Part shown: positions 57,076 through 61,881 of the stretch, piece by piece
Layout of the letters: each line of letters begins with the position of its first letter
Position numbering within the stretch: position 1 is the first letter of the stretch
Assembly (NCBI RefSeq): GCF_010730575.1
Contig: NZ_AP022614.1
Span: 2,170,001 to 2,234,000 of the forward strand
Origin: Mycobacterium parmense
GTDB taxonomy: Bacteria > Actinomycetota > Actinomycetes > Mycobacteriales > Mycobacteriaceae
DNA length: 64,000 nt
Reading direction: 5' to 3'
Notes under the pieces: model-generated
The model's input: the letters and a program-made list of their open reading frames with translations, nothing else
Told to the model about the DNA's origin: nothing
The model's database searches: none
Position numbers and translations under genes: made by a program

Positions 57076-57102
57076 TCTCCGGCTTGGCGTCTATTCCGGA
57101 CT
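57076..57102. repeat. Left attachment repeat (attL core; ancestral aspS 3' end)
   Basis: Begins TCTCCGGCTTGGCGTCTATT and ends CCGGACT; identical in all 27 positions to 60117-60143. Flanks differ on both sides (CAACTT before, GCGTACCC after). Inside it, TCCGG and CCGGA form a short inverted repeat 13 bp apart, as in tyrosine-recombinase core sites. The minus strand encodes SGIDAKPE in the aspS frame. Confidence 0.92.
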
Positions 57103-57223
57103 GCGTACCCGGCGTTGGTATCGCGTAGCCGCGATGGTCCCGCGACGCAATCCCTGGCCACAGCGTTGAGACTGCTGGCCGCCGGAAACGTTGAAAAATA
57201 GTGTTTCGTTCCCGCTGCGTACC
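57101..57223 (+). repeat. CTGCGTACC short direct repeats, left end of element
   Basis: The 9-mer CTGCGTACC occurs at 57101-57109 (abutting the core repeat) and 57215-57223, each followed by CCG. Together with the two copies at the right end these may be integrase arm-binding sites, or remnants of a duplicated end. Confidence 0.5.
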
Positions 57224-57579
57224 CGCACATCAGAAGCGCGTCCAGCGGCCGCCAAATCTTCACACCACGATCCAAGCATCAAACAGGGGGCCAAGGTGAC
57301 CGGCGACCAATATGGCCGACGGCCGCGTCGAGCAGTACGTGCTTCTCGTCCCCGCGGGGGGACGTCGAGGTCACCGCCGCCGGTGCGCGCCAGCTGGCCC
57401 GCCGCGCTGCATAATGCGGCGGATTCCCTCGATGACCTGCGGTGAGCTGCTCCCCAGCGGCCTCGAGAGCAGCTGGCGACGAAACTCGAACCCCGTCCCT
57501 GCAGCGATAAACCATCCTCGAGTTACGACACGCGATACTCGGGGCATACCCTGAGGTTGCGATTAGAAGATCTGGGGTG
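57103..57579. other. Non-coding left part of the element
   Basis: About 480 bp between the left repeat and the first gene's control region. Several short open frames exist on both strands, but none shows a family motif, a ribosome-binding site or consistent codon bias. One plus-strand stretch near 57312-57420 (DGRVEQYVLLVPAG, then a frameshift into GDVEVTAAGARQLARRAA) could be debris of an old gene. The integrase that should have moved the element may once have been encoded here. Confidence 0.45.
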
Positions 57580-57585
57580 TAAAAA
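57557..57585 (+). promoter_or_regulatory. Candidate promoter of the DGQHR-like gene
   Basis: TTGCGA (57557-57562) and TAAAAA (57580-57585) are separated by 17 bp, a reasonable SigA-type spacing. Transcription would begin near 57592 and produce a leader of about 120 nt before the ATG at 57712. Both hexamers match consensus only in part, so this is tentative. Confidence 0.35.
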
Positions 57586-57587
57586 GA

Positions 57588-57615
57588 AGAAGCCCGGCCG
57601 ACCGGCCGGGCTTCT
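57588..57615 (-). terminator. Strong intrinsic terminator, minus strand
   Basis: A perfect 12-bp stem AGAAGCCCGGCC (57588-57599)/GGCCGGGCTTCT (57604-57615) with a 4-nt loop. On the minus strand it is followed by TCTTTTTACACC, a U-tract. It would stop readthrough from aspS, which is otherwise antisense to the element's genes. On the plus strand no U-tract follows. Confidence 0.75.
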
Positions 57616-57627
57616 GAAACGGAGGTT

Positions 57628-59838: not shown

Positions 59839-59851
59839 CGCCGCAGCCCGG

Positions 59852-60067
59852 TCACTGTGTGGACACCTCGGTGGCCGCCGTCGCCTCCGGTGCGCCGCCC
59901 AGGGCTACGGCGCAGGCGATGACCTGGTCGGCCAGCGCGGCCCGCTCGGTCGACGGGGCGGTGTAGATGCGGGCGGCCAGGCCGAGCAGCTCGGCGGCGC
60001 CGGCTTTGCGACCCTGGCCGAGACCGTAGGCGCAGCGCGGGGGCGGACCACTGCGTACCCACTGCGT
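59852..60067 (-). pseudogene. Possible 5'-truncated coding remnant
   Basis: A minus-strand frame of about 71 codons reads GRKAGAAELLGLAARIYTAP and later ERAALADQVIACAVALGGAP before a stop at 59852-59854. It has high GC in third positions but no start codon; a TAG lies upstream within the 60087 hairpin. It could be the 3' end of a gene lost when the element decayed. Chance open frames are common in GC-rich DNA, so this is weak. I recognise no family. Confidence 0.25.
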
Positions 60068-60070
60068 ACC
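60051..60070 (+). repeat. CTGCGTACC tandem direct repeats, right end of element
   Basis: Two copies at 60051-60059 and 60062-60070 form an 11-bp-spaced tandem (ACTGCGTACCC then ACTGCGTACC). Same orientation as the two left-end copies. They lie 47-66 bp from the right core repeat. Confidence 0.5.
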
Positions 60071-60086
60071 GAGAGCACCTGATCGC

Positions 60087-60114
60087 AGCTAACGTGCAGG
60101 TGAGCACGTTAGCT
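60087..60114 (-). terminator. Perfect hairpin at the aspS stop codon
   Basis: An 11-bp inverted repeat AGCTAACGTGC (60087-60097)/GCACGTTAGCT (60104-60114) with a 6-nt loop. The aspS TAA (60111-60109) lies in its first arm. There is no U-tract, so it may be a mycobacterial-type terminator, or a binding site belonging to the element's right end. Confidence 0.5.
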
Positions 60115-61881
60115 GGTCTCCGGCTTGGCGTCTATTCCGGACTCCTTGCGCTGCTGGGCGGTGATCGGCGCCGGCGCGTTGGTCAGCGGGTCGACGCCGC
60201 CGCCGGTCTTGGGGAACGCGATCACCTCGCGGATGGAGTCGACACCGGACAGCAGCGCGTTGATCCGGTCCCATCCGAACGCGATTCCCCCGTGCGGCGG
60301 GGCGCCGAAGGTGAACGCCTCCAACAGGAATCCGAACTTTTCCTCGGCTTCGGCGTGATCGAGGCCCATCACCGCGAAGACCCGCTCCTGGATGTCGCGG
60401 CGGTGGATACGGATGGAGCCCCCGCCGATCTCGTTGCCGTTGCACACGATGTCGTAGGCGTCGGCGAGCACGCCACCGGGATCGGTGTCCACCGCCTCTT
60501 CATGGCCCGGCTTGGGCGAGGTGAACGCGTGGTGCACCGCGGTCCACGCCCCCGAGCCCACGGCCACGTCGCCGGCGGCGGTGGCGTCGTCGGCGGGCTC
60601 GAACAGCGGCGGGTCCACGACCCACACGAACGCCCACGCCTTGGGGTCGATCATGTCGAGCCGCGCGGCGATCTCGCCGCGCGCGGCCCCCAACAGGGCC
60701 CGCGACGGTTTCGCCGGTCCCGCGGAGAAGAAGATGCAGTCGCCGGGCTTGGCCCCGACGTGGGCGGCCAGGCCAGAGCGTTCGGCGTCGGAGAGGTTCT
60801 TGGCGACCGGACCGCTCAGCGTCCCGTCGTCGCCGACCAGCACGTAGGCCAGCCCGCGGTGGCCGCGCTGTTTGGCCCACTCCTGCCAGCCGTCCAGTGT
60901 GCGCCGCGGCTGCGAGGCGCCGCCGGGCATCACCACCGCGCCCACGTAGGGCGCCTGGAAGACACGAAACGTGGTGTCGGAGAAGAAGTCTGTGCACTCG
61001 ACCAGCTCGAGGGCGAACCGCATGTCGGGTTTGTCGGAGCCGAAGCGGCGCATCGCGTCGGCGTAGCTGATCCGCGGGATCGGCGTCGGGATCCGGTAAC
61101 CGATCAACTCCCACAACGCGGTGAGGATCTCCTCGGAGATCGCGATGATGTCCTCGGCGTCGACGAAGCTCATCTCCATGTCGAGCTGGGTGAACTCGGG
61201 CTGGCGGTCGGCGCGGAAATCCTCGTCGCGGTAGCAGCGGGCGATCTGGTAGTAGCGCTCCATGCCGGCGACCATCAGCAGCTGCTTGAACAGCTGCGGG
61301 CTCTGCGGCAGGGCGTAGAACGAGCCCGGGTGCAGCCGGGCGGGCACCAGGAAGTCGCGCGCCCCCTCCGGGGTCGAACGGGTGATCGTCGGCGTCTCGA
61401 CCTCGACGAAGTCGTGGCGCGCCAGCACCGCGCGCGCGGCGGCATTGACCTTGGCGCGCAACCGAAGTGCAGCTGCCGGCCCGTCGCGGCGCAGGTCGAG
61501 GTAACGGTACTTCAGCCGCAGCTCCTCACCGGCGGGCTCGTCGAGCTGGAACGGCAGCGCAGCGCTCTCCCCGAGCACGGTCAGCGACGCCGCGTTGACC
61601 TCGATGTCACCGGTGGCGATCTCGGCGTTGGCGTTGCCCTCCGGCCGGATCTCGACGGCGCCGGTGACCGCGACGCAGAACTCGGAGCGCAGCCGGTGCG
61701 CCTGCGCCAGCACGTCGGGCTCGCGGAACACCACCTGGGCGACCCCGGAGGCGTCGCGCAGGTCGATGAAGATGACACCGCCGTGGTCGCGGCGGCGGGC
61801 CACCCAACCGGCCAATGTCACCTGCTGCCCGGCGTCGCTACTTCTCAGCGAACCAGCGGCGTGGCTGCGCAGCACAAACAC
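60109..61881 (-). CDS. aspS: Aspartyl-tRNA synthetase (non-discriminating type), with element-derived C-terminus
   Basis: A 590-residue class IIb synthetase: OB-fold anticodon domain (VTLAGWVARRRDHGGVIFID), motif 2 region (CYRDEDFRADRQPEFTQLD), GAD insertion, and motif 3 (HGGIAFGWDRI). In mycobacteria AspRS also charges tRNA-Asn, which is then transamidated by GatCAB. The GTG at 61879-61881 with AAAGGGA upstream gives the VFVLRSHAAG start as in Mtb. The last three residues and stop come from the inserted element; the ancestral end was PEKVERA. The replaced tail is outside conserved motifs, so activity should be intact. Confidence 0.97.
   Translation of the reverse strand: MFVLRSHAAGSLRSSDAGQQVTLAGWVARRRDHGGVIFIDLRDASGVAQVVFREPDVLAQAHRLRSEFCVAVTGAVEIRPEGNANAEIATGDIEVNAASLTVLGESAALPFQLDEPAGEELRLKYRYLDLRRDGPAAALRLRAKVNAAARAVLARHDFVEVETPTITRSTPEGARDFLVPARLHPGSFYALPQSPQLFKQLLMVAGMERYYQIARCYRDEDFRADRQPEFTQLDMEMSFVDAEDIIAISEEILTALWELIGYRIPTPIPRISYADAMRRFGSDKPDMRFALELVECTDFFSDTTFRVFQAPYVGAVVMPGGASQPRRTLDGWQEWAKQRGHRGLAYVLVGDDGTLSGPVAKNLSDAERSGLAAHVGAKPGDCIFFSAGPAKPSRALLGAARGEIAARLDMIDPKAWAFVWVVDPPLFEPADDATAAGDVAVGSGAWTAVHHAFTSPKPGHEEAVDTDPGGVLADAYDIVCNGNEIGGGSIRIHRRDIQERVFAVMGLDHAEAEEKFGFLLEAFTFGAPPHGGIAFGWDRINALLSGVDSIREVIAFPKTGGGVDPLTNAPAPITAQQRKESGIDAKPETS
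60117..60143. repeat. Right attachment repeat (attR core, within aspS)
   Basis: Second copy of the 27-bp core, inside the current aspS coding sequence and encoding the same SGIDAKPE residues. Left of it the sequence is element-derived and supplies the new last residues and stop. Right of it is normal aspS sequence. Confidence 0.92.

What the first reader, a model, noticed from the sequence alone, without database searches (positions are those of the whole stretch)
57076..60143. A 3-kb element integrated at the 3' end of aspS with rebuilt gene ends
Seen directly: a 27-bp perfect direct repeat lies inside aspS (60117-60143) and again just upstream of the ddn-like gene (57076-57102). The left copy retains the displaced aspS tail (SGIDAKPEKVERA and stop), whose stop overlaps the ddn-like ATG as in an intact operon. 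Together the copies reconstruct the uninterrupted ancestor. aspS as an integration target is one I do not recall being described. The absence of an integrase makes the movement mechanism an open question.
Basis: partly seen in the sequence, partly recalled or inferred. Interest (0 to 1): 0.9.

Follow-up and report, generated by a model that had tools for sequence, protein, structure and literature searches.

The report
Integrase-less mini-island at aspS end
A 3-kb piece of foreign DNA carrying two accessory genes, one of them a candidate anti-phage gene, has been inserted at a precise site in the tail of an essential mycobacterial gene; it keeps the landing signals of a known kind of phage-like integrase but has lost the integrase itself.

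Summary
A perfect 27-bp direct repeat (57076-57102, 60117-60143) bounds a 3-kb insertion in the 3' end of aspS, and the displaced aspS tail overlaps the ddn-like start. The script-joined empty site aligns across the junction to all 13 relatives compared; 45 of 66 surveyed Mycobacterium loci with ddn in reach have the two genes within 60 bp. The missing mechanism can be largely filled in. The ends carry GGTACGCAG direct repeats whose sequence, 11-bp pairing and distances to the core match the attachment sites of a clade of mycobacterial tyrosine integrases, in which the arm pair lies in, or just past, the last codons of int. Two other species have aspS insertions with the same int-side arm layout and no integrase match in the stretches held. 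Seven of the 66 loci have a displaced core before ddn, so the site is a recurrent target. Cargo: a distant DndB-family gene and an AbiJ_NTD4 gene (PADLOC candidate PDC-S32). Best reading: an integrase-less, CIME-like derivative of a PICI-like integrative family. Whether int was lost before or after arrival, and whether it still moves, is not shown; one far-side arm is degenerate.

The parts
60117..60143 (-). core repeat, resident copy in the aspS 3' end (int-side junction)
   Evidence: (27/27 identity)
57076..57102 (-). core repeat, displaced copy (far-side junction)
57059..57102 (-). displaced original aspS tail SGIDAKPEKVERA-stop, its TGA overlapping the ddn-like ATG
   Evidence: same tail and overlap in G017 and G058
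60109..60116 (-). element-supplied new end of aspS (completes ...ETS and stop)
60051..60070 (+). int-side arm pair CTGCGTACC-CA-CTGCGTACC (minus strand GGTACGCAG-TG-GGTACGCAG), 46 bp from the core
   Evidence: the same 20-mer is the far-side pair of the G061 element and of prophage contig L077
57215..57223 (+). far-side arm site CTGCGTACC, 121 bp from the core (119-134 in four other elements)
57204..57212 (+). degenerate second far-side arm (minus strand GGAACGAAA, 3 mismatches to GGTACGCAG)
   Evidence: alignment
57101..57109 (+). further CTGCGTACC touching the displaced core; role unclear
60008..60082 (+). putative integrase C-terminal relic ...ATLAETVGAARGRTTAYPLRTEST-stop; stop placed as in intact integrases; no profile support once arm-coded residues are removed
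57712..58890 (+). cargo gene 1, 392 aa, distant DndB family (PF14072, 31.4 bits, cut-off 29.1)
59026..59838 (+). cargo gene 2, 270 aa, AbiJ_NTD4 protein, PADLOC candidate defence PDC-S32 (283 bits)
57590..57613 (.). GC-rich hairpin upstream of cargo gene 1 (terminator-like)
   Evidence: read by eye, located
58894..58926 (.). perfect 16-bp inverted repeat downstream of cargo gene 1 (terminator-like)
   Evidence: I20
60109..61992 (-). aspS, aspartyl-tRNA synthetase (target gene; mechanical ORF, true start not determined)
56619..57062 (-). ddn-like F420H2-dependent quinone reductase, the ancestral downstream neighbour

Best explanation
57076-60143 is an integrative element inserted by site-specific recombination in the aspS 3' end. 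The integrase that made it belonged to a clade of mycobacterial tyrosine integrases whose elements carry paired, 11-bp-spaced GGTNCGCAG-like arm sites on both sides of a core and sit at 3' ends of tRNA and protein genes. Shown: core repeat, empty sites, arm sites, att geometry, orientation with aspS on the int side, and absence of int. Inferred: the element descends from an int-bearing (PICI-like) ancestor by loss of nearly all of int, keeping only the arm-bearing 3' end, while carrying or acquiring accessory genes. The cargo is a distant DndB-family gene and a candidate anti-phage AbiJ_NTD4 gene. Excision would need an integrase with aspS-core specificity supplied in trans; none was found. 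I put loss of int in situ at about 0.55 and arrival already int-less (moved in trans) at about 0.45.
For: 27-bp exact repeat and empty sites. CTGCGTACC: 4 of 5 window matches are at the element ends, same orientation; shuffles average 0.39 and 0 of 100 reach 5. The arm pair (up to 1 mismatch) occurs once in the own genome. In intact integrases of G061, G263, G257 and five viral contigs the arm pair is in the last codons of int; in G209 it starts 6 bp past the int stop. Of 21 integrase loci tested, 6 have a pair of the looser form NGTNCGCAG at the int 3' end: L142 and the five best-scoring; L246 and L247, next in E-value, lack it although their percent identity is similar. The far-side flanks of 6 elements align with shared blocks. 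Of 396 genus genomes only the window, G134 and G036 have aspS core plus arm pair, and no integrase match was found in the held stretches of G134 and G036. The own genome has an int fragment of this clade and one distant integrase at E up to 1e-10.
Against: No autonomous element with an aspS core was found: 3 of 396 genomes with the full junction pattern; 2 stretches among 84,980 species, the same two species; 0 in viral contigs. The int relic is weak by profile: E = 0.084 for the window segment, 0.0063 for G134, 1.1 for G036, another window segment (31801-31896) scored better (0.06), and nothing at the relics among the hits shown once arm-coded residues are removed. One far-side arm is degenerate. 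Six of the seven other displaced-core inserts have no arm pair at up to 2 mismatches, so they may be old decay products or have another origin. The middle of the G036 insert is not assembled. The link to PICI-like satellites rests on the integrases and on one relative with capsid and primase-like genes (G209), not on the window element.
Confidence: 0.82

Rival explanations
1. Actively trans-mobilised mini-element: cargo-only islands with attachment sites are a regular form, excised and inserted by integrases of int-bearing relatives (as MITEs use a transposase or CALINs an integron integrase; passage of PMC11389934).
For: Three species have aspS insertions with the same int-side arm layout and little shared sequence beyond the ends, with no integrase match in the stretches held. 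Core copies in the window are identical over 27 bp, which fits a recent insertion. M. interjectum (G134) encodes a full-length integrase of the clade, with a related arm pair, at another locus. The 20-bp int-side arm pair of the G134 aspS element is identical to that of an integrase in G034.
Against: No integrase with an aspS core found; the window genome has only an int fragment of the clade; one far arm is degenerate.
Confidence: 0.4
2. Dead fossil: an int-bearing island integrated at aspS, then deletions removed int and most genes; the repeats are only scars.
For: Degenerate second far arm; int fragment elsewhere in the genome; displaced cores in other species differ from the window core by 1-4 of 18 bases in six of seven cases, and those six have no arm pair, as expected of decaying scars.
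Against: Window core copies are identical although the displaced one is no longer part of aspS; int-side arms and spacing are intact.
Confidence: 0.45
3. Transposon or insertion-sequence event with a long target duplication.
For: Direct repeats flank the insert.
Against: 27 bp is long for a target duplication (recalled); no transposase among the element ORFs scanned; no inverted repeats at the boundaries in the list returned; the same position is hit in other species.
Confidence: 0.03
4. Homologous recombination or partial gene duplication of the aspS end, without a site-specific recombinase.
For: Six of seven other displaced-core inserts have no arm pair.
Against: Arm sites at conserved distances in the window element; only the core, not a longer aspS stretch, is duplicated.
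Confidence: 0.05

Closest known systems
CIMEs (cis-mobilizable elements flanked by attL/attR without integrase)
   Same: Two att ends, no integrase, accretion at a shared site (G036 looks composite).
   Different: CIMEs were defined as ICE derivatives in streptococci (recalled; only a search listing seen); here the relatives are PICI-like and no conjugation gene was seen among the ORFs scanned.
Mycobacterium candidate PICIs, including phiRv1/phiRv2-type elements (PMC10654092, sections 7 and 9 read)
   Same: Tyrosine integrase, insertion at gene 3' ends; relative G209 has capsid and primase-like genes.
   Different: The window element has no integrase, capsid or primase gene. That paper reports tRNA, tmRNA, intergenic and coding sites; 'aspartyl' and 'aspartate' do not occur in its main text.
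Mycobacteriophage attP sites of cluster K (PMC3203893, passages seen)
   Same: Pairs of 11-bp arm-type repeats flanking a core; direct orientation in L5, Giles and most Pixie sites.
   Different: There attP lies 5' of int, and in K1 phages the two pairs are inverted to each other; here the int-side pair is at the 3' end of int and all arms are direct.
AbiJ_NTD4 proteins / PADLOC PDC-S32
   Same: Match over nearly the whole protein; relatives in 25 plasmid records, of Enterococcus, Leptospira and Aquicella.
   Different: 28-36% identity in the 10 of 25 rows listed; in the three records opened the neighbours differ and none is annotated as DndB-like.

Membership tests
Tyrosine-integrase integrative elements | direct-repeat core at both ends, one copy in the empty site | tested here: met
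Tyrosine-integrase integrative elements | arm-type sites flanking the core at conserved distance | tested here: met
   (one of two far-side arms degenerate; binding itself not tested)
Tyrosine-integrase integrative elements | own integrase gene | tested here: not met
   relic only inferred
Tyrosine-integrase integrative elements | excision as a circle | not testable with these tools
   needs PCR
CIME | attL and attR without integrase or transfer genes | tested here: met
CIME | derived from an ICE | tested here: inconclusive
   relatives examined look PICI-like rather than ICE-like; not every gene was scanned
PICI / cf-PICI | integrase plus capsid or other PICI core genes | tested here: not met
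Transposon / MITE | terminal inverted repeats and short target duplication | tested here: not met
   (25 longest of 64 inverted pairs shown)
AbiJ_NTD4 / PDC-S32 | profile match over nearly the whole protein | tested here: met
AbiJ_NTD4 / PDC-S32 | anti-phage activity | not testable with these tools
   bench assay needed
Dnd phosphorothioation system (DndB) | DndB equivalog score and dnd partner genes | tested here: not met
   TIGR03233 13.4 bits against cut-off 328; no dnd partner among the element ORFs

The most novel reading that the evidence does not exclude
Mycobacteria harbour a class of integrase-less, cargo-only mini-islands that keep attachment sites and are moved in trans by the integrases of PICI-like satellites. 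The aspS 3' end is one of their shared landing and accretion sites, through which candidate anti-phage genes change hands: a tyrosine-integrase counterpart of MITEs and CALINs.
Probability: 0.33. Interest if true: 0.65.

Novelty: new variant of a known kind. Interest (0 to 1): 0.5.

Why it matters
Elements without an integrase are invisible to methods that start from an integrase, including the Mycobacterium survey read here, which searched for regions with an integrase or transposase, or with a phage gene (PMC10654092, section 9). The arm-pair-at-int signature and similar core-to-arm distances give a way to find such elements by their ends alone. It also shows that an essential tRNA-synthetase gene end is a recurrent insertion site in mycobacteria that tolerates replacement of its last residues.

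Tried and rejected
Rejected: a transposon origin. Rejected: tRNA-type target (no tRNA in the window). A pairing of the two cargo genes as one conserved defence system was not supported: in the three plasmid records opened no neighbour of the AbiJ_NTD4 gene is annotated as DndB-like, and the one direct comparison made gave nothing. Cargo relatives: AbiJ_NTD4 in 1 of 151 family genomes, its own; DndB-like in 2 of 151, own included. Searches that find close relatives only gave none for DndB-like in genome contigs and none for AbiJ in viral contigs; DndB-like had no match in phages or plasmids; neither cargo protein had a solved relative by sequence. Structure models from single sequences were useless (mean pLDDT 32 and 40), so no fold search was run. 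A profile of integrase tails did not prove the relic; the window segment 31801-31896, which scored better than the relic, I take as chance. The stretch 59838-60045 gave only short matches outside itself (best E 7.9e-8 over about 50 bp). Rfam gave one sub-threshold match over the hairpin region (31.7 bits against 55). A core-like match in G257 proved to lie in an unrelated gene.

Biases: the 100 survey loci are 21 of the best-matching loci, 19 of the 20 stretches fetched partly because their match ran past the core or looked occupied, and 60 more in listing order (skipping those held and G061, whose aspS contig ends early). 34 of 100 had no ddn in reach and are outside the 45/66 and 7/66 counts. 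The 13 relatives were chosen because they looked empty. Integrase loci are those returned; hits without a locus were not tested. Targets such as glnA in G257 and L216, and the gene ends at the G263, G134 and G017 integrases, were judged by eye; only the G061 target was confirmed by Pfam.
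Full report
What was checked. The 27-bp direct repeat is exact at 57076-57102 and 60117-60143, and 26 of its 27 bases occur only there in the 5.95-Mb genome at up to two mismatches. The left copy is followed by the old aspS tail, SGIDAKPEKVERA and stop, whose TGA overlaps the ATG of the ddn-like gene. The right copy is in aspS, which now ends ETS and stop. So aspS keeps its reading frame and gets a new end of two residues from the element.

Is it an insertion? Yes. The aspS query matched in 195 of 198 genus genomes. I examined 100 loci from other genomes (selection told under Tried and rejected). 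The aspS end was found in all 100 and the ddn-like gene lay in reach in 66. In 45 of 66 the gap is 60 bp or less. G017 and G058 have the same tail and the same ATGA overlap as the displaced copy of the window. The script-joined empty site aligns across the junction to all 13 relatives compared, 6 of them gap-free over all 427 bp; each occupied junction aligns only on its host side.

The site is used repeatedly. Of the 21 of 66 loci with a gap over 60 bp, 7 have a second core (0-4 mismatches in 18 to the window core; none of 200 shuffled cores as good in any of the seven) just upstream of ddn: G134 with 5.7 kb, G034 0.95 kb, G100 0.57 kb, G062 0.55 kb (by its sequence probably one event with G100), G116 0.50 kb, G118 0.42 kb, G021 0.11 kb. 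The other 14 of 21 have no such copy. G134 has arm pairs at both ends; the other six have none at up to 2 mismatches. Three more genomes are occupied by partial evidence, read by eye: G036, whose two ends lie on different contigs and whose far side runs from arm sites straight into a piece of the small gene of the G100/G062 inserts, that is, a composite; G167, whose ddn contig has a core preceded by foreign DNA; and G103, whose aspS tail continues into a similar flank until the contig ends. By contig, G134 is Mycobacterium interjectum ATCC 51457T and G036 is Mycobacterium sp. E2733.

The ends name the recombinase. CTGCGTACC (GGTACGCAG on the other strand) occurs five times in the 64-kb window, four of them at the element ends in one orientation; shuffles average 0.39 and none of 100 reached five. 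On the aspS side two copies lie 11 bp apart. A scan of viral contigs for this pair gave 46 stretches; for most I found no integrase beside the pair, but in a group of them (L064, L072, L073, L077, L082) the pair lies in the last codons of a tyrosine integrase. In the genus, 20 of 297 genomes have the pair. They include int-bearing elements at glnA (G061, G257), at a tRNA gene (G209) and at another coding gene (G263). In G061, G263 and G257 int reads into the arms and towards the core next to the host gene end; in G209 the pair starts 6 bp past the int stop. Distances from core to int-side arms are 36-65 bp and from far-side arm to core 119-134 bp in four elements; the window gives 46 and 121 (G209 approximate). 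The far-side flanks of six elements align with shared blocks, and there the second arm of the window has three mismatches. Of 21 integrase loci tested, 6 carry a pair of the looser form NGTNCGCAG at the int 3' end: L142 and the five best-scoring integrases. L246 and L247, next in E-value and of similar percent identity, do not.

What is missing and what is left of it. The window element has no integrase. The frame through the int-side arms ends ...ATLAETVGAARGRTTAYPLRTEST and stop. In G036 it ends ...LAETVGAARAPADRLRTTST, in G134 ...KTTADQLRTESQ, and in intact integrases ...SAAYRLRTEAPQ or ...SAADRLRTEVSR. The LRT residues are encoded by the arm itself, so they are not independent evidence. 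The stop position (29 bases past the first base of the arm pair in all three aspS elements, 29-62 in intact integrases) is suggestive. A profile of integrase tails gave E = 0.084 for the window segment, 0.0063 for G134 and 1.1 for G036; an unrelated window segment scored 0.06, and none of the three relics appeared among the hits shown when arm-coded residues were removed. I therefore call the relic inferred.

Is there a helper? The own genome has an int fragment of the clade at 1363774-1364238 and one distant full-length integrase (E up to 1e-10). G134 has a full-length clade integrase with a related arm pair elsewhere. The 20-bp int-side arm pair of its aspS element is identical to that of an integrase in G034. 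No integrase with an aspS core was found among 396 genus genomes, in genome contigs of 84,980 species or in viral contigs; these were exact patterns, so a diverged one could be missed. Trans movement is possible in principle and not shown.

Cargo. Gene 1 is a distant DndB-family protein (31.4 bits, cut-off 29.1) that fails the DndB equivalog; it sits between two hairpins. Gene 2 matches AbiJ_NTD4 over residues 6-145 and PADLOC PDC-S32 over 6-265 of 270. Both are rare in the family: 2 and 1 of 151 genomes, own genome included. GC is 64.1% against 70.8% for the window. The name says candidate defence, not tested defence.

How it most likely works. Shown: site, borders, arm sites, geometry, no int. 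Inferred: an integrase of this clade joined attP to the aspS 3' end; the element is a reduced derivative, keeping both ends and accessory genes; it now rests there, or moves only when a matching integrase is present. Identity of the two cores over 27 bp favours a recent event; the degenerate far arm argues against full function.

Relation to the known. In form it is CIME-like (recalled definition). By ancestry I place it with Mycobacterium PICI-like elements: G209 has integrase, capsid and primase-like genes. PMC10654092 (sections 7 and 9 read) describes such elements and finds regions by integrase, transposase or phage genes, which would miss this one. PMC8092301 (passages seen) reports prophage integration that replaces seven C-terminal residues of a host protein with eight prophage-derived ones, the same kind of outcome as here. 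PMC3203893 (passages seen) describes arm pairs in cluster K phages. PMC12884075 (passages seen) notes that many islands use protein-coding genes. The target itself may not be wholly new in bacteria: PMC7545054 (one table passage seen) lists aspS beside an E. coli island. Searches for a mycobacterial aspS site found none in the open library.

Noticed in passing
L131:6816-8003 with L130/L131 (G061 contig C64, about 20 kb between arm sets): Int-bearing element at the glnA 3' end (glutamine synthetase by Pfam), with a helix-turn-helix regulator gene directly before int; by eye the G257 integrase and IMG/VR contig L216 also sit at a glnA end.
   Followed up: partly
L133 (G209 contig C23), 6370-15239: 8.9-kb element at a tRNA gene with integrase, DUF3631/primase-like gene and phage capsid gene: a candidate PICI.
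   Followed up: partly
L233 and L050 (Mycobacterium sp. E2733, G036): aspS site looks composite: far-side arm sites run directly into a piece of the small gene found in the G100/G062 inserts, then the displaced core.
   Followed up: partly
G000:C1:1363774-1364238 (L153): Truncated integrase of the same clade in the own genome, arm pair CTGCGGACGCTCTGCGGACG still at its 3' end.
   Followed up: partly
L154:5177-6424 (G134) and L243 (G017): Clade integrases inserted at the 3' end of a gene ending ...AVNPFKP, another protein-gene target (by eye).
   Followed up: no
L033:3479-4993 (G134 aspS element): Transposase-like ORF (IS1634-type by eye, not searched) inside the M. interjectum aspS insert.
   Followed up: no
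window 57590-57613 and 58894-58926: The DndB-like gene is bracketed by two GC-rich hairpins, which would insulate it from neighbouring transcription.
   Followed up: no
L035 and L044 (G040, G034), just after aspS: Similar-looking gene follows aspS in both species; in G034 it is followed by a displaced core, so a resident gene may have come in at this site (by eye).
   Followed up: no
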